From Lachnospiraceae bacterium (GTDB lineage: Bacteria; Bacillota; Clostridia; Lachnospirales; Lachnospiraceae): a DNA stretch of 37,015 nt. The notes under the pieces were generated by a model, which was not told the origin of the DNA, ran no database searches, and worked only from the letters and a program-made list of their open reading frames with translations. Below are positions 1 to 20,186 of the stretch, piece after piece. The translations under genes and the position numbers were made by a program. Location of the stretch: assembly GCA_017416465.1 (NCBI GenBank), contig JAFQCK010000016.1:1-37015 (forward strand), read 5' to 3'. Within the stretch, counting starts at the first letter, position 1. Every line of letters starts with the position of its first letter.

Positions 1-30
1 AGTGACCCCTAAATTTAGAAAGCAATTGAA

Positions 31-98
31 AAAGGAACATTCTCCGGAAAAATAATCATACTTAAAAAGTATTGATTTTAGGAGAATGTTCCTTTTTT
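31..98 (-). terminator. Intrinsic terminator after the ATPase-like gene
   Basis: A 15-bp perfect stem (AAAGGAACATTCTCC at 31-45 with its complement at 81-95) encloses a 35-base loop. It ends the minus-strand operon whose last stop is at 111. A T-run follows on the plus side (90s), so it may work in both directions. Confidence 0.8.
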
Positions 99-110
99 GT
101 TATTCAGGAG

Positions 111-1343
111 TTAAAAATCGGTATTTACCGACAACTCCATACATTTTTCAAAACGATATCTCTCTGCTCTTTTAAAAACCTCTTCAATAGCCCCAGGTAA
201 TAAACGATATCTACCGGCCAATTGCTCATAATCCAAGCTTTCCTCTACTAAATATTTTTTTCCAATACACTTCCACAAAGAAAGACTTTCTTTTAAACTT
301 ATTTTTTTAAAAGAAATTTGATGTGCAGATAGTGCTAACCTATGAACAATTGTACTTTTAGGATCAACACCAATAAATACTAATGTATATTCAGATAAAA
401 TTTCTCTTACATATCTTGTAACGTCAGAGCTTTCCTCTGTACAATTATGTAAATTCAGATATAATAGACATCCATTAACCATACACTTAAAATGAATCTC
501 TTGTAAAATATCCTCTAACTCCTTATACGATTTCTCTAATAGAATTGATATATTAATTTCACATAACCTATACCCTAATCTTTTAGATACTTCTCTACAA
601 AAAAATTTTTTCCCTGCTCCTATACGACCTTTCAATTCAAATATTAGCTGATTTTCTATTTTTTCTTCTAATTGACGTCGTGCTACTGTAAGGCACCAAT
701 CTAACTCCTCACTACGAATTACTGATTGCTCTTTAACACCTGAATGTATATTCATAATTCCTTTTTTATACAACTTTATATCGTCTTGTTGACATAACCA
801 TAAATATACATATTCTCTTAAACAAAACTGACTATCATATAGATTTTCAAATAATTCATTCTTTATTCTGCTATCTGTAATTAATTGAGTCACATCATAT
901 TCTATCCCTATATAATGAGCTAATGCACAAATCAAAAATGCATCCGGTTTACTTCTCTTTGTATCTCCCTGCAATATTAGAAAACTTTTTTCATATTTAG
1001 GAGCACAACGATATGCATATGTTATAACAATACTAAAAATCCATAATTCATTTAATTCATACAAATAACATAATTGTGTCATTCTTGATGAATCTGTATC
1101 AACCTCATTTGTTTTTATTACTTCTAACAGGCTTTTCCACATATTTTTCAAAGTTGAAGTTGATTGAGCATAATTTAATCCTTCAGTCATCGAAAAAATC
1201 AATTCTTCTTCCATAACCGGAAGTCCCGGCAAGTAAAATAATTCTTTAAAATCACATCTTTTATCTAAAACTTCTTTCAATAAAAGATTCACAAATTCAC
1301 ATACACCATTCAATATTGAATGATTATCATCTTTTTTATTCAT
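111..1343 (-). CDS. Truncated AAA ATPase-like protein, eCIS (Afp15/Pvc15) type
   Basis: About 410 aa. The N-terminal half (roughly residues 90-150) has the pattern L-x-x-F-x-I near a YEKSFLILQGD...KPD block. This resembles the N-domain of the AAA ATPases of extracellular contractile injection systems (Afp15/Pvc15). An AAA-like core follows, with a P-loop-like GRIGAGKK at 239-246 (Thr/Ser replaced by Lys) and a Walker B-like strand CLLYLNLHN without the Asp-Glu pair. The C-terminal winged part ends soon after, where family members normally continue with a second, active AAA domain. It is therefore probably a non-hydrolysing or adaptor form. The ATG at 1343 is preferred over an upstream GTG (1358) because GGGAG lies 8 bases before it. 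It is last in the operon, 41 bases after the YbjN gene. The family call is my reading and unconfirmed. Confidence 0.6.
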   Translation of the reverse strand: MNKKDDNHSILNGVCEFVNLLLKEVLDKRCDFKELFYLPGLPVMEEELIFSMTEGLNYAQSTSTLKNMWKSLLEVIKTNEVDTDSSRMTQLCYLYELNELWIFSIVITYAYRCAPKYEKSFLILQGDTKRSKPDAFLICALAHYIGIEYDVTQLITDSRIKNELFENLYDSQFCLREYVYLWLCQQDDIKLYKKGIMNIHSGVKEQSVIRSEELDWCLTVARRQLEEKIENQLIFELKGRIGAGKKFFCREVSKRLGYRLCEINISILLEKSYKELEDILQEIHFKCMVNGCLLYLNLHNCTEESSDVTRYVREILSEYTLVFIGVDPKSTIVHRLALSAHQISFKKISLKESLSLWKCIGKKYLVEESLDYEQLAGRYRLLPGAIEEVFKRAERYRFEKCMELSVNTDF

Positions 1344-1384
1344 TGCAAATTCTCCCACATATTTTATTAATGTTTATATTCAAG

Positions 1385-1792
1385 CTAACCTTCTATCGCC
1401 AACTTCATCATATCTCTAAAATATGCATCTGTTACTTTCATTGCAAGCATAATTAACTCCTTCATCCATATTTCACTCTCTTCTCCTAATGAAATCTTTT
1501 GAGATAATCGAAAATTAATCTGCCCATCTTCCATATCCATATAAAAAGCTCCCATCTTAAGCTTACTTGTGATATTTCCTAACGCAACAACCGCCTTTGT
1601 TCGCATTCTTTCCGGCACTTGAAAAGGATATGCCGTAACTATAAACAGTATCTGCTCTTCTTCCATTACACTCACTCTTGCATACCAGCTTCCATTATCT
1701 CCATTTACTGAAAAAACAATACCTTCCTCTTCTCTTTTTATTTCTATTTTTTCTTCATTAGCCCATTTTAAAACATAATCTAACAATTCCAT
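1385..1792 (-). CDS. YbjN-family (type III secretion chaperone fold) protein
   Basis: 135 aa. The order of features matches YbjN: a short N-terminal helix, a W-x-A-x-V strand (SWYARVSV), a central E-x-x-I-L-F-I-V-T-A-Y strand, P-x-x-V-P-E-R-M-R, then an N-x-x-x-K-x-G-x-F-x-M-D strand and a long C-terminal helix. YbjN proteins share the alpha/beta fold of type III secretion chaperones and usually act as small cytoplasmic binding partners. The gene starts 15 bases after the 1461-aa protein ends and has an AGGAGG site 5 bases before its ATG. A plausible role is chaperone for that large protein; this is inference from position. Confidence 0.75.
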   Translation of the reverse strand: MELLDYVLKWANEEKIEIKREEEGIVFSVNGDNGSWYARVSVMEEEQILFIVTAYPFQVPERMRTKAVVALGNITSKLKMGAFYMDMEDGQINFRLSQKISLGEESEIWMKELIMLAMKVTDAYFRDMMKLAIEG

Positions 1793-1807
1793 AAATTCCT
1801 CCTGAAC

Positions 1808-4800
1808 TTATATATTTCTTGCACCTTTCGGCAAAAAATTCGATTTTATATTTTGTGTATTTGATTCTTCCAATAAATCATCATACTTTTTGAACTGATT
1901 ACTGTTTCCAACCCAACTAATAACTTTTTTAATATTTTCATTTTTTATAATATCAGTATTAGATTTCATTTTATCTACATATTCTTTTGAATAAATATCA
2001 ACAACATTTTTTGCCGCATTTGAATTAAAATCTTTATCCTTTAGAGCAATTTTACTCTCTTGTTGTAAAAGAATCAATTTTCTACTATATTCTCCTTTTT
2101 TTTCATTTATAGTATTAAAAGATTTTTGTACAGCTTTTAACATATTTTCAGCATTTTTAACTTTCATATCGGATTTTAAAAGTTTTTCTTCAATCTGATC
2201 CATTTCATCAAAAATATTAATGACACTTTCACCTTTTACAACATCTTCTAAAGAGCCCGAAAAAATTTCCTTAAATTTCTCTCCTGTAGCAACAGCTAAA
2301 GAATTTCTAATAATATTAGCAGCACTAATTTTTTCTTCATTAAAAATCCTATCATCAAGTGTAATTTTTTCAGCAAAACCAAAAGATTTATATAGCAATT
2401 CCAGTTTTTCTTCAGGTGTTGCATTAATTTTTGTACCATCCGGGGCCTCATCTTTTAACACACACTTTAATAAATCTTTCATTTTGATTCTAGGATTATT
2501 CTCTACAATAAATCTAAAACGTTTTGGAAAATCTCTTATAGTTCTTTTAAACTTTACCCCTTCTCTATCATAACTATTTCTAAACTCCCTACGTTCAAAT
2601 ATTGCTTTCTCATTCAAAACTGAATAAAAAGAAGACTGGCTCTCATATAAAGATAAACCGGTATGAACAAACTTCGTATCAAAACAATACTGATATCTCT
2701 TATCTTCTTCACTAAAAGTATCAAATAAAAGATTAGCAAAAATAGGATTTCCATTTTTCGTTTTATAATCATATTCTTCTCGAATCCTCTTCAAATTTTC
2801 ATCAGATACTTCCCCAAGTATTCTTGCTATCATTAAATCAACTGCTGCTTTTTTGTCAATTTCTTTATTTTCCTTGCTAATCGATTTTATTAATTCTTCT
2901 CTTTTTTTCAAATCGTTTTCATACTTTTTTTGAGCTTCCTTTTGCATTTTTTTATTTTCAATATTTGTATCATCAAGATATTTATAATCATTTCTATTTA
3001 ATTCTTTAGGCATTTCCTTTTTTTCATATTTTTCTTTTTTGAATCCTCCCCACTCAGCTTTTTCTAAAACATCTTTTGATACACCTGATTTTTTTTCATA
3101 TTGCTTTTTTTGATTATTAAATTCCTCTAACATTTTCTGTGCTGATTTTCTATCTTCATCTAGTGCTTTTTGGCTGTCTGTAAGCAAAGATATATACAAT
3201 TGCACTTTATCTATCACTTCTTTAGTCACAGTTTCAATTTGAACATCCAAAGCTTCTTTATCATCCTTATTTAATATAATTAAAGTATTATCCCTCTTTT
3301 CTTTTAATTCACATAAAACAGCCCACGCATCCTCTGTTTCTTTTTCACTATTTTCTACTAACTTTTTAAGTTCCTCACTTGAATTCGAATTTACTTTCTC
3401 CGATTGATTGTTTTTATATTTCTTTCCAATTTCTTTCGAAAACCAACTTGCACTAAACTCTCCACTCTTTATGTTCCATCCTTTTGTCAAACCTTTTTGG
3501 TTATGGTCTTTACTTCCGGCACCATTAAATTCTAACTTTCCAAGTTCTTTTTTTAGCAATTCAAAACTAAATAACTGTTTATTCCAAAATAAAAACTTCA
3601 CATTACTACTTAAATTCAATGCACCTTCTAAATTACCCCCTAACTTTCCTTCAAATTCAAAATCGTCTGACTGTCTGAGCTTTCCATCTTTTTCTTCGTA
3701 CTTAAATTTTGTTTCTCCGCTCAAACCTCCTTCTATTTTTGTACCTAATTCTCCTCCTACTTTAAAATCCACATTAGCCAACACCGGAACGCCTAATTCA
3801 ACTCCGGCTTCAGCAGCAATTGATGCTTTTCCTTCTGTCTTTACCTCTCCACCAAGCTTTAATTCATCCTGGTCTTCCCATTTTTCATCAAAACTCTTTC
3901 CACGTTCTACCGAAAATCCAATTTCACCTGCGATACTTGCTGATGGTTTAAAACCAAACTTCACTTGTACGCCCGGAATACCGGTAGGAATATATATATT
4001 CTCAGAAATATTCTGATCCATTAATTGAAAAAATGAACCCTCAGGATTTTCTGTTTCTACTTCTTTTTTTGCCGAAACTTCGATTTTCCCAGCTGGATAA
4101 TCTATTTCTCCACCTAGGAATCCCATAAAATCCTCTACTTTATATTTTCCAAAAGTAGTTTTTTTCATTTTAGCTTGAATTCCTGTTAAATCTATCTTTG
4201 CCTCTTCACTTTTTGTCGCTACAGTTCCTGACATTTTACAGTTGAAAATCTTTAATAATTTATCATCCATTGAAAGTGTATTTTTTGCTTTATCAGGAAA
4301 GCTTTTTTCATCTTCATCATTTTTTTCAAAACCTTCCTGTTCAACCTTAAAACCTCTGTCCATTCTTAACGAGCCTGCATTTAAGTATCCATCATCAATA
4401 GAAAGATCCTCCATTGTAAATGTTCTTATAATACTCTCAGATTCATTTTCTTTCCCACCGATATTATTCAAATTCAAAGTAACCTCTGCATCAGACTCAA
4501 ATTCAGCACTAAGATTTCCTATATTATCAATATTAAATTTCACTTTTTCAACTGCATCTTTTCCATACGCCTCACCTTTAACCGTCGTATCATCCTTCAT
4601 AACTAAGTTATATGGAATTTTCAAAAACTTTACTTTACCTTCCCCTTTTATGTGAGCGTTCTCATTCTCTTCTTTTATAAATTCAAATTCTGCATCTTCT
4701 AATTTTGCAAAACCATCACGTGTAAATATTGACTCTTCAAACACGCTTGACTCTCTTGTAATTCCTTGTACTGCATCAGTAACTTCCAATTTTTTTGACG

Positions 4801-6193
4801 CTCCAATATTTTGGCTTCTTACATTTTGTTGAAATCCTTCTTTCATATAACCGCTTGAACCCAAATAAAAATCCACAAACTCTTTAGAAACATCTTGACT
4901 TTTATCAGATTTTTCTGAATTTTCACCAAAATTAAGTTGTGTCTTTACAGTTGCCGATTCATATAGTGCACCCCATTCCCTATCGAATTTATAATTATTC
5001 ATAATAGTTGTAAAACCTTCAATTTCAGTTTCTGCTGTCTTTGCATTCAATACACCACTTTTATTATCTTCAACTTTTACATTCGACATTTTAACATCAT
5101 TATCATTCAAATAAGCTTTTCCATTTTTTGCTTCAATATAATCTTGTTCTTTAACAGTGATATCTTCCAACTCTATAGAAAAACCATAAAAATTAGCGGT
5201 AGCAGACTTAGCATGTAAAATACCTTCTTTGCGCTCAGGTGCTTTTAAATAAAATGAAGTTGAACCAATATCAACAACATAATATGTTTTCAACCACTCT
5301 CCTGTATTTTTAAAATCAAACTCAGCTTTAAGTGCTTCATCATCCAAAACAGTGCTTGAATATTGTTCCACAACATCTTTTAATTCTCTTTTATTAGAAG
5401 GTTTAAGAATACCTTCACTATCCATCTCTACTTCTATTTTATCCACTAGGATATTTTGATTATATTTTATTTTAGTATCCCAAAACTTTAAAGACCCTTT
5501 TTCTGAATACGAACATTTTGTATATTCTCCTTGATTTAATTCCACCTCATAACCAGGCTGAGGATTGAACACAACCGGTTCTCTTAAATATGCACTAATT
5601 TCTATATCACTGTTATTTTTATTAGCATCCTGAATACTAATAAAATGCAACATAGCCAATTCAGCTTCTTTCTCTTCATTCACACCCATATTAGATGGTT
5701 TTAATAACATCTTACCTCCAGGCGAAAAGAAAACAACTGAATTACCACCATCCGGTTCTCCCTTTTTTGATACCATTCCACCCATTGTCAATGGATTTAC
5801 GAAAACTCCTGTTTCCAGTTCTATATTTCCCTTATCAAATCTATAATTTGCTGTTGAAATAGTTTCCTGATTTTCAATTTCCGAAGCATTAAACTCAGTT
5901 TGAGGTAATAATATACTGTCAACTTGTTCTTCTGTATTAGGCAAAGTTATCTTGTCATATTTAGAACCACTATCTACAGGTAAAGTATATGGTTGCACCT
6001 GTGGTACAATTTCATACATATATTCTAATTTTACTTGCTGATTATGTATTCTTAGAAGTCGTTCTTTCCATTCCATATCAGACACTACTTCTTCTCTTCT
6101 AACAAAATCATCAACAACTTCACTCTTATTGGAAGTTTTTTTGACTTTTTCAGTTTTTGCTTTGCCTGTTTTTCCCACTACTTTCTTTGGCAT
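1808..6193 (-). CDS. Giant beta-repeat/coiled-coil protein, candidate injected cargo
   Basis: 1461 aa with no recognised domain. The start is Lys/Thr-rich. Residues about 60-700 are beta-rich, with degenerate repeats of the form G-x-L-x-A-x-x-A-x-x-x-x-x-G-F followed by charged segments. Residues about 735-900 form a glycine-rich amphipathic-strand region (for example AGEIGFSVERG, KVGGELGTKIEGGL). From about 930 to 1120 there is strongly charged Lys/Glu coiled coil, then a helical domain with DFPKRFRF near 1218. No signal peptide, membrane segment or sorting motif is visible, so it is not a classical secreted protein. It is the first gene of an operon with a YbjN protein and an eCIS-type ATPase relative, so cargo of a contractile or other injection machine is a reasonable guess. 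The ribosome binding site (AGAGAG) is weak. A structural scaffold role is equally possible. Confidence 0.6.
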   Translation of the reverse strand: MPKKVVGKTGKAKTEKVKKTSNKSEVVDDFVRREEVVSDMEWKERLLRIHNQQVKLEYMYEIVPQVQPYTLPVDSGSKYDKITLPNTEEQVDSILLPQTEFNASEIENQETISTANYRFDKGNIELETGVFVNPLTMGGMVSKKGEPDGGNSVVFFSPGGKMLLKPSNMGVNEEKEAELAMLHFISIQDANKNNSDIEISAYLREPVVFNPQPGYEVELNQGEYTKCSYSEKGSLKFWDTKIKYNQNILVDKIEVEMDSEGILKPSNKRELKDVVEQYSSTVLDDEALKAEFDFKNTGEWLKTYYVVDIGSTSFYLKAPERKEGILHAKSATANFYGFSIELEDITVKEQDYIEAKNGKAYLNDNDVKMSNVKVEDNKSGVLNAKTAETEIEGFTTIMNNYKFDREWGALYESATVKTQLNFGENSEKSDKSQDVSKEFVDFYLGSSGYMKEGFQQNVRSQNIGASKKLEVTDAVQGITRESSVFEESIFTRDGFAKLEDAEFEFIKEENENAHIKGEGKVKFLKIPYNLVMKDDTTVKGEAYGKDAVEKVKFNIDNIGNLSAEFESDAEVTLNLNNIGGKENESESIIRTFTMEDLSIDDGYLNAGSLRMDRGFKVEQEGFEKNDEDEKSFPDKAKNTLSMDDKLLKIFNCKMSGTVATKSEEAKIDLTGIQAKMKKTTFGKYKVEDFMGFLGGEIDYPAGKIEVSAKKEVETENPEGSFFQLMDQNISENIYIPTGIPGVQVKFGFKPSASIAGEIGFSVERGKSFDEKWEDQDELKLGGEVKTEGKASIAAEAGVELGVPVLANVDFKVGGELGTKIEGGLSGETKFKYEEKDGKLRQSDDFEFEGKLGGNLEGALNLSSNVKFLFWNKQLFSFELLKKELGKLEFNGAGSKDHNQKGLTKGWNIKSGEFSASWFSKEIGKKYKNNQSEKVNSNSSEELKKLVENSEKETEDAWAVLCELKEKRDNTLIILNKDDKEALDVQIETVTKEVIDKVQLYISLLTDSQKALDEDRKSAQKMLEEFNNQKKQYEKKSGVSKDVLEKAEWGGFKKEKYEKKEMPKELNRNDYKYLDDTNIENKKMQKEAQKKYENDLKKREELIKSISKENKEIDKKAAVDLMIARILGEVSDENLKRIREEYDYKTKNGNPIFANLLFDTFSEEDKRYQYCFDTKFVHTGLSLYESQSSFYSVLNEKAIFERREFRNSYDREGVKFKRTIRDFPKRFRFIVENNPRIKMKDLLKCVLKDEAPDGTKINATPEEKLELLYKSFGFAEKITLDDRIFNEEKISAANIIRNSLAVATGEKFKEIFSGSLEDVVKGESVINIFDEMDQIEEKLLKSDMKVKNAENMLKAVQKSFNTINEKKGEYSRKLILLQQESKIALKDKDFNSNAAKNVVDIYSKEYVDKMKSNTDIIKNENIKKVISWVGNSNQFKKYDDLLEESNTQNIKSNFLPKGARNI

Positions 6194-6290
6194 ATATTTT
6201 TTCTCTCTTTCTACATCAGTCCTAAAAGCTTACATTTTTATAAAAATACAATACTAAATAACATCTTTTTACGCTCATAATTTACTTTTC

Positions 6291-6320
6291 ATTTTATCAT
6301 TCTATTATTATTTATTTCAA
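6291..6320 (-). promoter_or_regulatory. Promoter of the 1461-aa protein operon
   Basis: Read on the minus strand: -35 TTGAAA (6315-6320), 18-base spacer, -10 TAAAAT (6291-6296). It lies about 100 bases before the start codon at 6193, so the 5' leader is fairly long. Confidence 0.55.
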
Positions 6321-6325
6321 AAATG

Positions 6326-6355
6326 GAGTGAAAAGTCATTTTAGCAGAGTGAATG
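6326..6355. promoter_or_regulatory. LytTR-type direct repeat between divergent promoters
   Basis: GAGTGAA occurs at 6326-6332 and again at 6347-6353, a 21-bp period. LytTR regulators such as AgrA typically bind two direct half-sites one to two helical turns apart. The repeat ends 15 bases before the rightward -35 (6369) and begins 5 bases beyond the leftward -35 (6320). A bound regulator could therefore act on both operons. Confidence 0.55.
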
Positions 6356-6368
6356 GTAATGTAAAAAA

Positions 6369-6397
6369 TTGAATATTTTTTTATGTCGTGATATACT
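6369..6397 (+). promoter_or_regulatory. Promoter of the LytTR two-component operon
   Basis: -35 TTGAAT (6369-6374), 17-base spacer, -10 TATACT (6392-6397). It sits 32 bases before the response regulator ATG, with an AGGAGG site between. Confidence 0.7.
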
Positions 6398-6429
6398 ATT
6401 TATTCATAGAAATTTGAAGGAGGTTACTT

Positions 6430-7152
6430 ATGTTAAGAATCGCGATTTGTGATGATGAAATATCGTTTTTATCACAGATACAATCTATAATATCTGCATG
6501 GCACAATAATGCCTCCATAATTATTGATACTTTTAATAATGGAGATAGTTTATTACAATCACATTCAAATTCTCCTTATGATATAATTTTACTTGATATT
6601 GTTATGCCAATATTTAATGGAATTGAAGTTGCAAAAGAACTACGCGAATATGACAAATCAGTAAAAATTGTCTTTCTTACTTCATCAAAAGAATATGCTG
6701 TAGATTCATATACAGTAAAAGCAAACAATTATCTGTTAAAGCCTATCAACACCACTAAACTGTATACGTGTTTAGATGAGCTTTACATTGAAATAAAAAA
6801 CAATCAAAAAAAAATCCTTATCAAATGTGCTAATGCAATACATAAGGTTTCTCTGTGCGATATTGAATTTATTGAAGCTCAAAACAAACACACATTGTTC
6901 ACTTTAAGCAACAAACAAACATTAGAATCTATTGAATCACTTTACATTCATTCAGATAAACTTGTATTAGCAGATGGTTTTTTCAAGTGTCATCGTAGCT
7001 ATATTGTTAATATTAACCACATTGATACCTATACCTCAAAAGAAATCCGCATGTACTCGGGTTATCGTATTCCAATATCAAGGAATTGTCAGTCAGATTT
7101 TGAGAATGCATACTTTTCTTATACCTTCAAAAAGGCAGGTGAATTTATTTGA
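6430..7152 (+). CDS. AgrA-like LytTR response regulator
   Basis: 240 aa. The receiver domain (1-120) has the acidic pair in CDDE (8-10), phospho-acceptor Asp56 in LLDIVMP, Thr84 and Lys104 in LKP. The LytTR DNA-binding domain (about 130-235) carries the family signature FFKCHRSYIVNI and a final basic PISRN segment. It would be phosphorylated by the kinase encoded next, whose TTG start overlaps this stop codon. The direct repeat at 6326-6355 is the likely target, giving autoregulation and control of the divergent 1461-aa protein operon (inference). The start has AGGAGG 6-7 bases upstream. Confidence 0.9.
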   Translation: MLRIAICDDEISFLSQIQSIISAWHNNASIIIDTFNNGDSLLQSHSNSPYDIILLDIVMPIFNGIEVAKELREYDKSVKIVFLTSSKEYAVDSYTVKANNYLLKPINTTKLYTCLDELYIEIKNNQKKILIKCANAIHKVSLCDIEFIEAQNKHTLFTLSNKQTLESIESLYIHSDKLVLADGFFKCHRSYIVNINHIDTYTSKEIRMYSGYRIPISRNCQSDFENAYFSYTFKKAGEFI

Positions 7153-8411
7153 CAGAAAATATTTTTTCCATAATTGAACTCATTATTGTATTTTTTTTCG
7201 GAATATATTTATCTGGTGCATTTTGCGGAATATCCTTTACAAAAAAGAATGTTTTTATATTTTTTACTTTCTCTGTCATTTGTAACGTAATGATATTAAT
7301 TATTAATACTTTTCTAAATCTGATATTAGGTTGGAGAATTTTACCATTAATTGTACATCTTCCAAATTTTTTATTATTATTTTATTATTATCACAAACGT
7401 ATCTCTACCTGTCTTTCTTCCATATGCACCTCATACCTGCTATGTCAACCTCCCAGGTGGATATATTTAATACTTGAACAATTTATTAATAATATAATAA
7501 TCAAACTTTGTCTTTTTATAGTACTATATATTATTGCATTCTTGCTTGGCTATTATGTATCTCAACCAATCTCTAAACTCTATAATAAAGATAATAAAAG
7601 TATATATATCTTTGGAAGTGTACCTATTGTCTATTATATTGTAAATTATTATTTAGAAACCTATACTAATTTTTGGTCCAATAGCAATCCTATAATTACG
7701 GAATTTTTTCGATTTTTTTTGTGTATTGTTTTTCTGTTATTCAGCGTTGTTTATTATAAAGAATATGAGAGCAAAGCAGACTTAGAACTTCAAGAACAAT
7801 TTATAAAAATTTCTTTTGAACAACAAAAAAAAGAACTTGAAAGTATTAAAGAAAAAGAAAATGAAATCCGAATTATAAAACATGATATGCGTTTATTTTT
7901 AAATACGCTTATTATGCATATAAATCAAGATGATAAAGAGGCAGCTCTAAATTTAGCAACAACACTTGCTTCGAATATAGAAGCTACTAATATCAGGCGC
8001 TATTGTGATAATGATATAGTGAATTATATTGTTTCTGATTATGCCGCTAAATGTGAAAAGTCTTGTGTTTATTTTCATGCAACAATAGAAATTCAAGAAC
8101 TTGATATAGATGAAATTATTTTTTCCTCTATTCTTTCAAATGCATTAGACAATGCATTAAATGCAACATCTAAACTTTCAGAGAAAGAACGTAATATTAA
8201 ATTCTTATTAAAAACAACAAACGGAAAACTCTTATTATCCATAAGAAATCCATTCAGTGGTAACATTGTTTTTTCAGACGGACTTCCTGTCTCAAAAATA
8301 TCCGGACATGGATACGGTACACAAAGTATACGATATATGACCAAACGTTTAGGTGGTAATTGTCAGTTTACAATTGAAGAAAATGAATTTATCTTAAGAG
8401 TGGTAATTTAG
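7149..8411 (+). CDS. AgrC-like membrane histidine kinase (GHKL)
   Basis: 420 aa. Six hydrophobic segments occupy residues 1-205, followed by a linker helix. The dimerisation/phosphoacceptor motif is IIKHDMRLFLNTL (His245). The ATPase domain has N-box LSNALDNALNA (Asn331, Asn335) and a G-box SGHGYGTQSIR. This layout is that of AgrC/ComD-type kinases that sense peptides. It starts at TTG, which shares bases with the TGA of the response regulator (TTGA), with AGGTGA about 7 bases upstream, so translation is probably coupled. No AgrB/AgrD-type signal genes lie next to it, so its ligand is unknown. Confidence 0.88.
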   Translation: MTENIFSIIELIIVFFFGIYLSGAFCGISFTKKNVFIFFTFSVICNVMILIINTFLNLILGWRILPLIVHLPNFLLLFYYYHKRISTCLSSICTSYLLCQPPRWIYLILEQFINNIIIKLCLFIVLYIIAFLLGYYVSQPISKLYNKDNKSIYIFGSVPIVYYIVNYYLETYTNFWSNSNPIITEFFRFFLCIVFLLFSVVYYKEYESKADLELQEQFIKISFEQQKKELESIKEKENEIRIIKHDMRLFLNTLIMHINQDDKEAALNLATTLASNIEATNIRRYCDNDIVNYIVSDYAAKCEKSCVYFHATIEIQELDIDEIIFSSILSNALDNALNATSKLSEKERNIKFLLKTTNGKLLLSIRNPFSGNIVFSDGLPVSKISGHGYGTQSIRYMTKRLGGNCQFTIEENEFILRVVI

Positions 8412-9074: not shown

Positions 9075-9968
9075 TTAATCCTGTAACATATCTAAATACA
9101 TATCTAATCGGGCATTAATGTATCCTGCAAACAGATTTTCCATTGCCGAAAGATTGTGCTTTACATGATATTCATCGAAGGCATTATAATAGGCAATTCT
9201 ATCTGTAAACTTAATATCAATAGGTGGGAATCCGGCTTTCATCAACTCAAGATTTACAAGCAGTCTTCCGGTTCTGCCATTACCGTCAATGAAAGGATGA
9301 ATGCCCTCAAACTCAATGTGAAAACGAGCCAATTTTGTCACGATATGCTCTGTGCTTGCAGCAAAATCATATAGCAACTGTTCCATCTTCGTCTCAATAA
9401 GATATGGCTGCACGGGTTCATGCTGTGCACCCATAATACGAACCGGAACTCTACGGTAGACACCACGGTCTTCTTTCTTATCCGCAAGAACGAGATAGTG
9501 AATCTGTTTGATGATGCTCTCACTAATCGGAACATTATCTTTTACCAGTTCACTCACAAAATCAAATGCTTCTTTATGACCGACTGCCTCCATATGGTCT
9601 TTCAGCGGTTTCTGGTCAATCGTAAGACCACGAAGAACTAAATCCGTTTCTCGCAGTGTAAGTGTATTTCCTTCGATGGCATTGGAGTTGTATGTGTACT
9701 CTACGATAAATTCTTCGTTGAGCCTTGCAACCTCACCCGCAGTTAAAGGTCTTCTGCTGTCCAGTTCTACCTTCTTGCGGTCAATTTGTGCCAAGAGGCT
9801 TTCCTTTGACTTATAACGACCATCGGCAGGTTTCTTTGCATCCACAGGAATTTTCCATCCACGCCCTTCCTGGTATGCACCCGGAATTTTCCCATCCGAA
9901 CAAAGAACTCTGATTCTTCTATCAGAAATGCCCCATTTTTCAGAAGCCTGTTTTACTGTCATAAACAT
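9075..9968 (-). CDS. HTH-Fic family AMPylase with self-inhibition motif
   Basis: 297 aa. Residues 1-45 form a MerR/excisionase-like helix-turn-helix (VKQASEKWGISDRRIRVLC, then a GRGWKIP turn). The Fic core follows, with the complete catalytic motif HPFIDGNGRTGR (224-235, His224), so transfer of AMP from ATP to a protein hydroxyl is expected. The inhibitory motif S-N-A-I-E-G (95-100, matching S/T-x-x-x-E-G/N) precedes the core, marking a class II, self-restrained Fic protein. The gene is visibly richer in G+C than its neighbours, suggesting separate acquisition. ATG at 9968 has GGAGGG upstream. A promoter with three operator-like repeats precedes it, so the HTH may repress its own gene (inference). 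The target protein is unknown. Confidence 0.88.
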   Translation of the reverse strand: MFMTVKQASEKWGISDRRIRVLCSDGKIPGAYQEGRGWKIPVDAKKPADGRYKSKESLLAQIDRKKVELDSRRPLTAGEVARLNEEFIVEYTYNSNAIEGNTLTLRETDLVLRGLTIDQKPLKDHMEAVGHKEAFDFVSELVKDNVPISESIIKQIHYLVLADKKEDRGVYRRVPVRIMGAQHEPVQPYLIETKMEQLLYDFAASTEHIVTKLARFHIEFEGIHPFIDGNGRTGRLLVNLELMKAGFPPIDIKFTDRIAYYNAFDEYHVKHNLSAMENLFAGYINARLDMYLDMLQD

Positions 9969-13067: not shown

Positions 13068-14102
13068 TCATGATTTATATTCAACATGTACCTTAACACT
13101 TTCTTCTCCATATTGAAATTCAAAATTCGCCCCACGATTGGTACTTCTTATATATTCGTCAACTTTATTAATTATCGTATCTATATTAACTGTATCACTA
13201 GTTCTAAGAAAAATATAATCTCCTGAATTCGTCATCCGGGATACACACTTTAAATCCTCAGCTGTGTTGATTCGATACACTCCCTTATATCCCATCTTAT
13301 AATATGGATAATCATTATATTCATTAGAATTTCCGTATGAAGCAGGCATATCGCCTATATATTCTTCTGCTTTATAATTTCTACTTATAAAATTTTTTGT
13401 ACAAAGGAAATATGTATATGAAATATTATCTCCATTAGGATAATCATTGGTTTTGATTCCTGCAGCATTAGATATTATAGGGTCATCCCAAGTTAAGTCA
13501 ATAAAATACCATTCTCCATCTATCTTAACAGCATTCCACGCATGATTTTCTCCTGCATACCCTGATATTAATGAACAAGGTATATCAATCTCATTCATAA
13601 ATATGTAAAATGCTACTGCATAACCCTGACACACTGCTCTGTTTTCATTTAAAATATTATACAGATGATTATGAGAATTATCCTTTTGGTAATATGTTTT
13701 GTCATAAGTAGTTCTTTTTATAAGATAATCATGCACAGTCTTTATTTTTTCTATTGTACTCATATCTGTATATAATATACTTTCGATAATACTTCTTACA
13801 GTATAAATATCCATTTCTGTTACATTACTGTATCCTTTACGAAGCTCAGGGTACGTGTTTACTGGTTTTGTAACTACAACCGGTGTTCTTTTAGTCTTAT
13901 CTGTTGTAAGATTCTCTACCGGTTGTGTCGGTTGTGGCTCTGTTTGCTTAATTTCCTGATTAGTTGAGGTAATTTTTTCTGTAGTTGTGGTTTCAAAATA
14001 ATCATTAATATTGAACGAAAGATTTCCACATCCAACTAAAGTAATTATCATAATAATAGCAAATATTGTTGCCAAAATTCTCCCATTATCCAAACTACGC
14101 AT
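13068..14102 (-). CDS. Transglutaminase-like lipoprotein
   Basis: 344 aa. A signal peptide with lipobox LVGC (Cys25) predicts anchoring to the outer face of the membrane. A Thr/Pro-rich linker (36-85) follows. The transglutaminase-like core has all three catalytic residues: Cys158 in RAVCQGYA, His187 in ENHAWN and Asp202 in YFIDLTWDDP. A short beta domain ends the protein. Clostridial relatives act as cysteine proteases or peptide-modifying enzymes of the cell surface. The ATG at 14102 is preceded by a purine-rich AGGTGGTAGGTGA. Confidence 0.88.
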   Translation of the reverse strand: MRSLDNGRILATIFAIIMIITLVGCGNLSFNINDYFETTTTEKITSTNQEIKQTEPQPTQPVENLTTDKTKRTPVVVTKPVNTYPELRKGYSNVTEMDIYTVRSIIESILYTDMSTIEKIKTVHDYLIKRTTYDKTYYQKDNSHNHLYNILNENRAVCQGYAVAFYIFMNEIDIPCSLISGYAGENHAWNAVKIDGEWYFIDLTWDDPIISNAAGIKTNDYPNGDNISYTYFLCTKNFISRNYKAEEYIGDMPASYGNSNEYNDYPYYKMGYKGVYRINTAEDLKCVSRMTNSGDYIFLRTSDTVNIDTIINKVDEYIRSTNRGANFEFQYGEESVKVHVEYKS

Positions 14103-17984: not shown

Positions 17985-19349
17985 TCACATCATCAACATA
18001 ACCGTTAATGTAAATTTATTCTCATCCTGACTTATATCTATATCTCCATAATATTTCTGTGCCACTTTGCGAATGTTAACAAGACCAAAACCATGGCTAC
18101 TTTTATCTATCTTTGTTGTTTCCGGCAAACCTGTTTCAGCATCTATTTCTATTCTTTTTTTAATACAATTGACTACTTCCAACATGTATGCATTTTTCTT
18201 TCTATATGCAGATATAAAAACATAAGGATTTTTACACTCCTTTACTCCTTCAAATGCATTTTCAATCGCATTGTTTAAAATCACACTAACATCAAAGGCA
18301 TTGATACTTGTATCAACCGGATAAACAAATTTACACTCAAAATCAATTCCTTTTTCTTCTGCCTCTTTTTGCTTCTGTGTTAAAATCACATCTGTAATAG
18401 GATTTCCGGTCTTAATCCCCTCCACACTTACGCAATAAGTTATTTTCAGCTCAGCCAGATACTTTTCACATTCATCATTTTCATTCTTTAAAAAAAGATT
18501 TTCTAACACAGAAATATGGTTTCCCATATCATGTTTTAATGCTCGTATATCTTCATATAATTTCTCTACTTCACTGATATGCTGCTTTGTATTCTCTATT
18601 TGTTCCTCAATTAATATATTCACATTTTCCTCACGCTGCTTTTCCTTTATTTTCTGATAAATCACTATCTCAATAAAAATTGCAGCAAAGGAAACAATCT
18701 GATATATCACTCTCAATAATAAATACTCCGGATGAAGAACCCATACATAATTTCCTGTATCCTCCACGTACACATTAGAAAAGAAATTAAAAGAAAAATA
18801 ACCCATCATTACCGTCAACAAAGTTGCAAAAAGTAATAACAATTCTTTCCCTGATATATCTTCTTTTTTATCTATATACACTTTATGAATTAACTTAATT
18901 ACAAGGCACATTATCGTTATGGCAACACTATAATATAATAATTCTACTATGATATATGCAATCAATTGCTTTACAGGTTCCTTATACATATATGATGTAT
19001 TAATAAATAAATCAAACATAATATTCCTAAGTACCAATGCCACACCATAAACAACCCACCTAAGCAAATATATGGAAGTCGCCAAAAATATTTTCTGTTT
19101 GATGTTTCTCCTTTCCAACAAACACATCATAATATATGCCACAAATATCCCCGAAAGATATGGATAAGTAATCTCTTGTGGCACACAGTAAAATACAAGC
19201 ATCACTACCGAATAGCTTAATCCTACATATAAAGTTTTTTGATTCATAAATGGTTTCACAAACCTATACACTAGCCATCCTTCTACCAAAATGTTTATTA
19301 TCACTATTGTTCGGTTTGCCATCTCCCAATATGTTTCGATATTATCCAT
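17985..19349 (-). CDS. AgrC-like membrane histidine kinase (GHKL), second system
   Basis: About 455 aa. Six to seven hydrophobic segments span residues 12-232, then a coiled linker. The phosphoacceptor motif is ALKHDMGNHIS (His273), the N-box VILNNAIENAFEG (Asn360, Asn364), and the G-box HGFGLVNIR near the end. The ATG at 19349 has AAGGG upstream; a GTG at 19355 with AGAGGA is equally possible and would abut the response regulator stop. It is expected to phosphorylate the LytTR regulator encoded just before it. The signal is unknown. Confidence 0.88.
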   Translation of the reverse strand: MDNIETYWEMANRTIVIINILVEGWLVYRFVKPFMNQKTLYVGLSYSVVMLVFYCVPQEITYPYLSGIFVAYIMMCLLERRNIKQKIFLATSIYLLRWVVYGVALVLRNIMFDLFINTSYMYKEPVKQLIAYIIVELLYYSVAITIMCLVIKLIHKVYIDKKEDISGKELLLLFATLLTVMMGYFSFNFFSNVYVEDTGNYVWVLHPEYLLLRVIYQIVSFAAIFIEIVIYQKIKEKQREENVNILIEEQIENTKQHISEVEKLYEDIRALKHDMGNHISVLENLFLKNENDECEKYLAELKITYCVSVEGIKTGNPITDVILTQKQKEAEEKGIDFECKFVYPVDTSINAFDVSVILNNAIENAFEGVKECKNPYVFISAYRKKNAYMLEVVNCIKKRIEIDAETGLPETTKIDKSSHGFGLVNIRKVAQKYYGDIDISQDENKFTLTVMLMM

Positions 19350-19355
19350 AATCAC

Positions 19356-20063
19356 TTACCCTTTCCTCTGAATGTACTTTATATATTTCTTTACAAACTC
19401 AGGATAATTTTTCTTTGCCATAAGAACATTTCCCTTTTCCAGATAAATTGTAGTTGCATCATATTTTTCTACATACTTAAAATTGATAAGATATGCCCTA
19501 TGTGTTCTAAAAAAACTATCCCCTGCTAACGCTTCAAGGTCAGACATTTTTCCGTAATACTCTATTTCATCATTCATCTTATGGATAACAACCTTACGAT
19601 TGAACACCTCTGCATAAACAATTTCATCAAGTATAACTTTCGTATGCACACCACTATTGTTAATTAGCACATATTTCTCTTCCTTCGCTATTGTATCTGT
19701 GTTTCGCGAATTCCATTCATCTATTGCCCTATGAAGTACATCTGCAAACTTGGCTTCATCAATAGGCTTCACAATATAATTGAATGCTCCTACATCAAAT
19801 GCCTGAAATACATATTCTTCAATTGCAGTAACAAAGATAATTATCACTTTTTTATCTTTTTGTCGTAATTCTTTAGCTATTTCCATACCATTTTTGCCAG
19901 GCATCTGAATATCTAAAAATAATATATCTATATTCTTATCTGATAAAAGCAGTTCATCTCCTGATGAAAAGAATACGATTTCTGCTTTAGGATACTGCTT
20001 TTCTACCTTATTTCCTATTAACTCCCTGATATTCTTTTCATCATCACAAATTCCTATTCGCAT
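19356..20063 (-). CDS. AgrA-like LytTR response regulator, second system
   Basis: About 235 aa. The receiver domain has acidic CDDE (6-9), phospho-acceptor Asp51 in FLDIQMPG, and Lys in YIVKPID. The LytTR domain carries SFFRTHRAYLINF and ends with an AKKNYPEF segment. The ATG at 20063 has AAGGA about 10 bases upstream; a GTG at 20072 is the alternative. Its own upstream region (20187-20218) and that of the DUF6033 operon (17944-17975) hold nearly identical direct repeats, so both are probably its targets (inference). Confidence 0.9.
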   Translation of the reverse strand: MRIGICDDEKNIRELIGNKVEKQYPKAEIVFFSSGDELLLSDKNIDILFLDIQMPGKNGMEIAKELRQKDKKVIIIFVTAIEEYVFQAFDVGAFNYIVKPIDEAKFADVLHRAIDEWNSRNTDTIAKEEKYVLINNSGVHTKVILDEIVYAEVFNRKVVIHKMNDEIEYYGKMSDLEALAGDSFFRTHRAYLINFKYVEKYDATTIYLEKGNVLMAKKNYPEFVKKYIKYIQRKG

Positions 20064-20186
20064 ATGATTCACTTCCTTGTATAATTCTTATATTTTACAC
20101 TCACAAATTTGTGCTGTAGCTTGATTCGTATTTCATATCTGTTTCATACTTATTTATCGTAATCTATATAAGGATTCGATAATGTG

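What the first reader, a model, noticed from the sequence alone, without database searches (positions are those of the whole stretch)
111..6193. Stand-alone operon: giant protein, YbjN chaperone-like protein and truncated contractile-injection ATPase relative
The sequence shows a three-gene unit with its own promoter and terminator. eCIS ATPases (Afp15/Pvc15) normally have two AAA parts; this one keeps the N-domain and one degenerate AAA core and then stops. Beside it are a type III chaperone-fold protein and a 1461-aa protein without any export signal. The unit may be a portable cargo + chaperone + loading-adaptor module used by an injection machine encoded elsewhere, a combination I do not know as described.
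Basis: partly seen in the sequence, partly recalled or inferred. Interest (0 to 1): 0.78.

Follow-up and report, generated by a model that had tools for sequence, protein, structure and literature searches.

The report
Detached cargo-loading cassette for injection machine
Three neighbouring genes in a gut-type Clostridia genome look like a cargo protein, its small chaperone and a motor-less loading adaptor for a phage-tail-like injection machine encoded elsewhere in the same genome, which points to a chaperone-based way of loading such machines.

Summary
The operon is real: BIG (1461 aa), a YbjN-family protein (135 aa) and a 410-aa protein, all on the minus strand, ending in a strong terminator (z -6.8). 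The 410-aa protein is the N-domain plus catalytically dead first AAA domain (D1) of extracellular contractile injection system (eCIS) ATPases; it ends where the motor domain D2 should begin, and it is the only intact D2-less version I saw. The same binned genome encodes a complete eCIS on another contig. In another family of the order, relatives of BIG and YbjN are adjacent in six genomes, in four of them directly behind a full ATPase. More widely, small YbjN-like proteins of five groups accompany cargo-sized genes near eCIS ATPases; two groups (five loci) have the window's order, cargo-chaperone-ATPase. Best reading: a detached cargo, chaperone and adaptor set serving the eCIS elsewhere in the genome. 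Homology and gene linkage are shown; binding, loading and injection are inferred. New variant of a known kind.

The parts
29..97 (-). intrinsic terminator closing the operon (17-bp stem, T-rich arms)
   Evidence: MFE -27.9 kcal/mol, z -6.8, 0 of 200 shuffles as good
111..1343 (-). 410-aa D2-less relative of eCIS AAA ATPases: N-domain + degenerate D1 + lid (longer GTG start at 1358 possible)
   Evidence: matches N/D1 of eCIS ATPases, HMM 15-410 of 703; Walker A ends K-K instead of K-T/S, no acidic Walker B; start site
1385..1792 (-). YbjN-family protein, proposed cargo chaperone
   Evidence: PF10722 22.8 bits (cut-off 22); 45 bits (E 6e-13) to the YbjN-like proteins beside BIG relatives in other genomes; RBS
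1808..6193 (-). BIG, 1461 aa, proposed eCIS cargo
   Evidence: no family above cut-off
3389..4051 (-). BIG residues 715-935: contains the domain (739-900) shared with giant proteins next to eCIS ATPases in another family
   Evidence: 26-27% identity; 16.5 bits, none of 2000 locally shuffled BIG proteins exceeds 6.3; found in 7 of 53 chosen genomes
6194..6429 (.). intergenic region between BIG and a divergent LytTR/GHKL two-component pair; operon promoter presumably here
   Evidence: candidate sites only, not above shuffles

Best explanation
The operon is a cargo-loading cassette for an eCIS. BIG is the cargo. The YbjN-like protein is its dedicated chaperone, probably a dimer that keeps part of BIG unfolded or soluble, as class I type III secretion chaperones do. 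The 410-aa protein is an adaptor made of only the N-domain and dead D1 ring domain of the eCIS loading ATPase. It would dock the chaperone-cargo complex onto, or join the ring of, one of the two full-length eCIS ATPases encoded on contig C129, whose D2 supplies the ATP hydrolysis that threads cargo into the tube. Shown here: gene structure, homologies, recurrence of cargo-chaperone-ATPase sets, an eCIS in the same binned genome. Inferred: BIG-YbjN binding, adaptor-ATPase contact, loading, injection.
For: (1) On its own the 410-aa protein matches the first AAA domain of eCIS ATPases (15 of 299 family genomes, own included, E 0.001) and it stops before D2. (2) Same-genome eCIS; tetranucleotide profile of window 6.4-37 kb correlates 0.66-0.93 with nine own C129 pieces, against 0.51-0.81 with 16 loci of other genomes. 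(3) Relatives of BIG and YbjN are adjacent in six genomes of one other family; a full ATPase sits directly upstream in four, and in three of these (L097, L099, L104) Pvc16_N and DUF4280 genes lie in the same cluster. (4) The BIG domain was found in 7 of 53 chosen genomes, and all 7 have the YbjN relative next door. (5) Cargo-chaperone-ATPase order recurs in L098, L103, L118, L100, L101, and ATPase-cargo-chaperone in L032, L041, with cargos showing no BLAST similarity to BIG at E 0.001. (6) The cargos of L100, L101 and L041 are related to each other (E 3e-21 to 7e-5), as are their chaperones (c3-c4 93.5%) and their D1 domains (one clade, support 97): three genes inherited as a set. (7) Profile comparison links the small companions with each other and with generic YbjN proteins; control pairs stay at 1.2% or less. 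(8) Literature: in Pvc15, D1 lacks catalytic residues and D2 is the sole ATPase (PMC11495950); a small chaperone-like protein is needed to load Mif1 into MACs (PMC6748791); YbjN proteins have a class I type III chaperone fold (PMC5398634).
Against: No binding, loading or injection data. In Pvc15 each domain, D2 included, is needed for loading, and D2 alone was enough to stabilise the cargo while deleting N and D1 had no effect on its amount (PMC11495950); so an N-D1 protein may not handle cargo at all and must work through a partner. The nearest YbjN relative (42% identity, L126) is an orphan in a 1.5-Mb genome with no eCIS ATPase or sheath found, and a second orphan exists (L139). BIG homology is limited to about 160 of 1461 residues at 16.5 bits. 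The 410-aa protein does not group with the ATPases beside the BIG relatives (placement support 27%). Several companion links are weak: group pairs c1-c3, c1-c4, c2-c3, c2-c4 and c4-generic at 2.5% or less; L101 alone 4.9%, L103 alone 8.1%. The genome is a bin (89.5% complete, 5.0% contaminated), so linkage to C129 rests on binning, and the composition ranges overlap.
Confidence: 0.58

Rival explanations
1. Decaying cassette: the operon was once a full cargo-chaperone-ATPase set; the ATPase lost D2 and the unit is now a relic without a loading role.
For: Only intact D2-less copy seen. Decay does occur: the ATPase of L032 is interrupted by one in-frame stop, and G578 has a BIG relative in pieces with no ATPase in the fetched 20 kb.
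Against: All three reading frames are open over 1461, 135 and 410 codons; good ribosome sites for two of the genes; the gene ends in a strong terminator right after the lid, with no D2 remnant in 1-110.
Confidence: 0.15
2. Independent cytosolic complex: the YbjN-like protein, BIG and an AAA-derived scaffold act inside the cell (stress or regulation) and no longer serve an eCIS.
For: YbjN proteins elsewhere are described as stress or virulence regulators outside secretion loci (PMC5398634, passages); two orphan YbjN relatives exist; the operon is on a different contig from the eCIS locus.
Against: BIG and YbjN relatives travel together, in four of six genomes directly beside eCIS ATPases; this genome retains an eCIS.
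Confidence: 0.14
3. BIG is not injected cargo but a structural or accessory part of the particle (for example a cap, tape-measure-like or surface protein) that needs the chaperone for assembly.
For: Large, beta-rich middle and helical C-terminal half by inspection of the sequence; no enzymatic domain recognised in BIG or its relative in L128; present in a minority of eCIS genomes.
Against: It is dispensable for most eCIS genomes asked (domain in 7 of 53) and sits with a chaperone-like gene and an ATPase relative, the usual company of cargo.
Confidence: 0.13

Closest known systems
Pvc15/Afp15 eCIS ATPases (Photorhabdus PVC, Serratia Afp)
   Same: N-domain followed by a D1 lacking catalytic residues
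   Different: Pvc15 has D2, its sole active ATPase domain (PMC11495950); the window protein ends before D2. No Pvc15 sequence was compared directly; the comparison is with the ATPases of eCIS loci fetched here
JF50_12605 / Mif1 of Pseudoalteromonas MACs
   Same: a protein not detected in the particle that interacts with itself, binds a large cargo and is needed to load it (PMC6748791)
   Different: no sequence relation tested here; no D2-less ATPase mentioned in the passages read
YbjN family (AmyR, DR1245) and class I type III secretion chaperones
   Same: window protein is a Pfam YbjN member; the solved family fold is the class I chaperone fold (PMC5398634)
   Different: the ybjN genes described there are not next to effectors; here it lies between a cargo-sized gene and an eCIS ATPase relative
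DUF4157 eCIS toxins and proposed chaperone role (PMC11297309)
   Same: idea of a chaperone for eCIS toxins in cis or in trans
   Different: different family; no DUF4157 match in the window operon

Membership tests
eCIS AAA ATPase (Pvc15/Afp15 type) | N-domain of the family | tested here: met
   profile alignment from HMM position 15 and A1 profile hit 1-390, but the window protein is itself a row of both profiles; single-sequence matches begin mostly at D1, in the best cases at residues 80-184
eCIS AAA ATPase (Pvc15/Afp15 type) | degenerate D1 | tested here: met
   single-sequence match to first AAA of own 769-aa ATPase E 3e-6; alignment
eCIS AAA ATPase (Pvc15/Afp15 type) | catalytic D2 (Walker A/B, arginine fingers) | tested here: not met
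   protein ends at HMM 410 of 703; terminator follows
YbjN family | Pfam PF10722 above curated cut-off | tested here: met
   22.8 bits, cut-off 22; NCBIfam gives no match
[quoted passage not shown]
   structure prediction queue full, two jobs interrupted, then switched off; fold known for YbjN relatives from PMC5398634
[quoted passage not shown]
   adjacent to BIG, but BIG is not shown to be an effector
eCIS cargo | found in the tube lumen or loaded by the ATPase | not testable with these tools
   needs particles
giant proteins next to eCIS ATPases (L097/L099/L104 type) | shared domain, BIG residues 739-900 | tested here: met
   16.5 bits, none of 2000 shuffles above 6.3, reverse search best hit L099 at E 0.002
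giant proteins next to eCIS ATPases (L097/L099/L104 type) | full-length homology | tested here: not met
   whole-length profile gives no significant score

The most novel reading that the evidence does not exclude
Clostridial contractile injection systems use cargo-specific loading sets made of a YbjN-superfamily chaperone, its cargo and a dedicated AAA ATPase, and in this genome the set has been reduced to a motor-less N-D1 adaptor that works in trans on another ATPase's D2. YbjN-fold proteins would then be the contractile-injection counterpart of class I type III secretion chaperones.
Probability: 0.4. Interest if true: 0.86.

Novelty: new variant of a known kind. Interest (0 to 1): 0.7.

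Why it matters
How cargo is chosen and loaded into contractile injection systems is largely open. A recurring chaperone next to cargo and ATPase would give a genomic handle for finding unknown cargos, suggest a role for the YbjN fold in these organisms, and provide a natural protein in which docking (N-D1) is separated from the motor (D2).

Tried and rejected
Led nowhere: relatives of BIG by single sequence: own copy only in 299 family genomes; none in plasmids, phages, viral contigs or genome contigs. Viral contigs gave nothing for the other two genes or for alignments A2 and A4. PDB sequence searches with the YbjN and BIG profiles gave no meaningful match; the N/D1 profile matched AAA proteins in general. 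Global alignment of BIG with its relatives (A3) is unreliable outside one domain, and its invariant columns were not used. The ATPase tree did not resolve the window protein. The contig end (window 1-120) has no second copy in the genome.

Considered and rejected: the window ATPase as a frameshift or assembly break of a full ATPase (no D2 remnant before the terminator); the single-AAA proteins of L086, L087, L088, L121, L122 and L143 as further N-D1 proteins (they match D2 only); a 185-aa frame in G591:C387 matching the N-domain as a further short copy (it lies at the end of a 4538-base contig, so it is cut); the own eCIS locus as holder of a second such chaperone (best of 49 small ORFs on the fetched parts of C129 reached 11.9% probability).

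Rows dropped: one of the 53 'N/D1+D2' proteins (L045:1103-3358) is a Clp-like ATPase matched weakly and is not counted, leaving 52; the own two ATPases are not among these 70 loci. In one search, several of the 39 genomes match only through the general AAA likeness of D1 to D2 of other AAA proteins. In one search, 53 genomes were chosen by hand from those with hits; G515, G522, G195, G358, G485, G457, G642, G827, G866, G915 and G983 were left out. In one search duplicates were merged and small ORFs not next to an ORF of 400 aa or more were not scored; the clusters c1-c5 were defined from these same loci, so only cross-cluster matches count as evidence.
Full report
WHAT IS THERE. The operon lies on the minus strand: BIG (1808-6193, 1461 aa), a YbjN-family protein (1385-1792, 135 aa) and a 410-aa protein (111-1343; 415 aa if a GTG at 1358 is used). 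A 17-bp stem at 29-97 with T-rich arms closes it (z -6.8). The promoter is not testable by consensus. Base 1 is the end of contig C84 of a 3.7-Mb binned genome in 172 contigs, 89.5% complete and 5.0% contaminated.

THE 410-AA PROTEIN. On its own it hits the first, degenerate AAA domain of a 769-aa ATPase in the same genome (E 3e-6; E 4e-8 in a small set), and ATPases in 15 of 299 family genomes, own included, at E 0.001. Alignment with 20 such ATPases shows N-domain, D1 and lid, then a stop before D2. Its Walker A reads G-R-I-G-A-G-K-K: the lysine is kept, the usual T/S is K (K in most relatives, R or Y in a few), and no acidic residue stands at Walker B. In 70 loci (969 ORFs) I counted 52 distinct proteins with N/D1 plus D2, after dropping one Clp-like match, and one with N/D1 only; the two own ATPases come on top. 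That one, L032, is a full-length gene with one in-frame stop whose D2 continues in frame 42 codons on. A profile search of 381 genomes across the class listed no other N/D1 match in a short frame; the one short frame there, G642, matches D2 only. A 185-aa N-domain match in G591 is cut by a contig end. So the window protein is the only intact D2-less one I saw.

THE MACHINE. Contig C129 of the same binned genome carries sheath (Phage_sheath_1, E 2e-20), tube (gp19, 3e-32), Pvc16_N (4e-27), DUF4280 (6e-27), spike OB (5e-21), gp25 (5e-18) and baseplate J (3e-9) proteins, two full ATPases (769 and 657 aa), and cargo-like proteins with Ntox11 (2e-24), calpain (1e-19) and weak Fam20C/PI-kinase-like (2e-5, 2e-6) domains. 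The sheath was found in 13 of 15 genomes asked, G000 included. Composition supports the two contigs being from one organism: window 6.4-37 kb correlates 0.66-0.93 with nine C129 pieces, against 0.51-0.81 with 16 loci from other genomes. The ranges overlap, so this is support, not proof.

THE CHAPERONE AND CARGO ELSEWHERE. In another family of the same order (handle f17) the gene order ATPase (693-697 aa), giant protein (1526-1568 aa), small protein (135-147 aa) occurs in G524, G503, G341 and G370. In G577 the contig begins inside the giant gene; in G578 the giant gene is broken and no ATPase is in the fetched 20 kb. In L097, L099 and L104 (G524, G503, G341) Pvc16_N and DUF4280 genes lie within the same 20 kb (E 1e-24 or better), and the sheath is on the same contig 26-33 kb away; in G370 the sheath is on another contig. 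The window YbjN matches the small proteins (45 bits, E 6e-13; 23-27% identity). BIG matches the giant proteins over residues 739-900: 16.5 bits, while none of 2000 locally shuffled BIG proteins exceeds 6.3; E 2.7e-4 among 1076 proteins, first after the family itself; the reverse search gives L099 first (E 0.002) and then, not significantly, a 1973-aa protein beside an eCIS ATPase in L040 (E 0.47). Full-length profiles do not match. The BIG domain was found in 7 of 53 hand-chosen genomes, and all 7 have the YbjN relative adjacent. Conversely 8 of 58 genomes of f17 have the YbjN relative, and two of these (G499 in L139; G570, which by coordinates is L126) have no BIG. L126 holds the closest YbjN relative, 42% identical, and its genome showed no eCIS ATPase or sheath. 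This counts against a role tied to eCIS in every genome.

A WIDER PATTERN. Beside other eCIS ATPases a cargo-sized gene and a small gene recur: 1087-189-ATPase (L100), 915-204-ATPase (L101), 475-174, 476-171 and 553-194 followed by two ATPases (L098, L103, L118), ATPase-1033-170 (L041) and ATPase-745-181 (L032). L110 has a companion (182 aa) between cargo-sized genes, but its ATPase is four genes away. These cargos show no BLAST similarity to BIG at E 0.001; those of L100, L101 and L041 are related to each other, as are those of L098, L103 and L118. For L100, L101 and L041 the chaperones (c3-c4, 93.5%) and the D1 domains (one clade, support 97) are related too, so the three genes appear to be inherited as a set. 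hhalign of group profiles: c1-generic YbjN 98.6%, c5-generic 93.9%, c3-c4 93.5%, c2-c5 81.6%, c4-c5 74.9%, c3-generic 73.5%, c3-c5 68.9%, c1-c5 54.8%, c1-c2 35.5%, c2-generic 23.0%; the other pairs are low (c1-c3 2.4, c1-c4 1.0, c2-c3 2.5, c2-c4 0.2, c4-generic 0.8). Pairs with four control families reach at most 1.2%. Among 71 small ORFs next to large ones in 54 loci with an ATPase-profile hit, the 11 companions and one generic YbjN protein head the list by construction; their best cross-group links range from 4.9% (L101) and 8.1% (L103) to 94.5%, and the best of the other 59 ORFs reached 20.8%. Pfam independently gives sub-threshold YbjN matches for L118 (18.5 bits), L097, L128 and L141, and none for L098, L100, L101, L110 or L032 and L041. 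G501, 99% complete, has the L100 set but no sheath match.

HOW IT MOST LIKELY WORKS. In Pvc15, N, D1 and D2 are all needed for loading, D2 is the only active ATPase domain, and D1 lacks catalytic residues; but D2 alone stabilised the cargo, and deleting N and D1 did not change its amount (PMC11495950, abstract and passages read). A natural N-D1 protein can therefore only act by docking or by joining another ATPase's ring. The MAC protein JF50_12605 shows that a self-interacting protein not detected in the particle can be needed to place a large cargo in a contractile tube (PMC6748791, passages read). YbjN proteins have the class I type III chaperone fold, but the family members described there are not next to effectors (PMC5398634, passages read). 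The window fits the missing case: YbjN between a cargo-sized gene and an eCIS loading-ATPase relative. Binding, loading and injection remain inference.

WHAT IS KNOWN. I searched the held open-access library for YbjN with contractile injection (0 papers), contractile injection system with chaperone, ATPase and cargo loading (1 paper), extracellular contractile injection with Lachnospiraceae (0), contractile injection with AAA ATPase, clostridi and effector (0), eCIS with chaperone and effector (23 papers, 20 listed), class I chaperone or CesT terms (13 papers, 10 listed, none on contractile systems by title) and Pvc15/Afp15/truncated (78 papers, 10 listed). Besides the three papers above I saw passages of PMC11297309, PMC12961389, PMC8213781, PMC11796346 and PMC13277306. 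I found no report of YbjN-type chaperones or of D2-less ATPases in these systems; subscription papers and preprints were not searchable, and most listed papers were not opened. The taxon of the window was not given; named records with the related loci are labelled Lachnospiraceae and Clostridia, so an order close to Lachnospirales is my inference.

VERDICT. Observation confirmed; interpretation supported at the level of homology and gene linkage; function inferred. New variant of a known kind, interest 0.70.

Noticed in passing
L004:9080-9940, L004:11790-12695, L006:10650-11474 (contig C129 of the same genome): Each of three cargo-like genes of the own eCIS is followed by a 274-301 aa protein with a GNAT-like match (Pfam E 0.034, below cut-off, 1e-9 and 2e-13); possibly another kind of cargo partner.
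   Followed up: partly
L100:8397-14238 (G501): A complete cargo-chaperone-ATPase set in a 99% complete genome in which no eCIS sheath was found.
   Followed up: partly
L098:5247-10004, L103:6724-11504, L118:6758-11286: Two ATPase genes in tandem directly after the chaperone-like gene, next to a divergent sheath-tube operon; several genomes here carry two or more such ATPases.
   Followed up: no
L041, L100, L101: Cargo, chaperone and ATPase D1 of these three loci are each related to one another although the gene order differs.
   Followed up: partly
window 6430-8411: Divergent LytTR response regulator and GHKL kinase begin 236 bases upstream of BIG; by inspection, response-regulator-like proteins also sit near eCIS ATPases in L040, L047 and L101. 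A second LytTR/GHKL pair lies at 17985-20072.
   Followed up: no
L140:8632-12465 (G578): A BIG relative in four separate pieces with an intact chaperone gene behind it: decay of the cargo before the chaperone.
   Followed up: partly
L032:10120-12240 (G196): An eCIS ATPase gene interrupted by one in-frame stop between D1 and D2.
   Followed up: partly
L126:7083-7484, L139:7011-7484: Orphan relatives of the window YbjN with no BIG or ATPase beside them; their role is unexplained.
   Followed up: partly
window 9075-9968 and 13068-14102: Fic/DOC-domain protein with a helix-turn-helix, and a transglutaminase-core protein; not linked to the operon by any evidence here.
   Followed up: no
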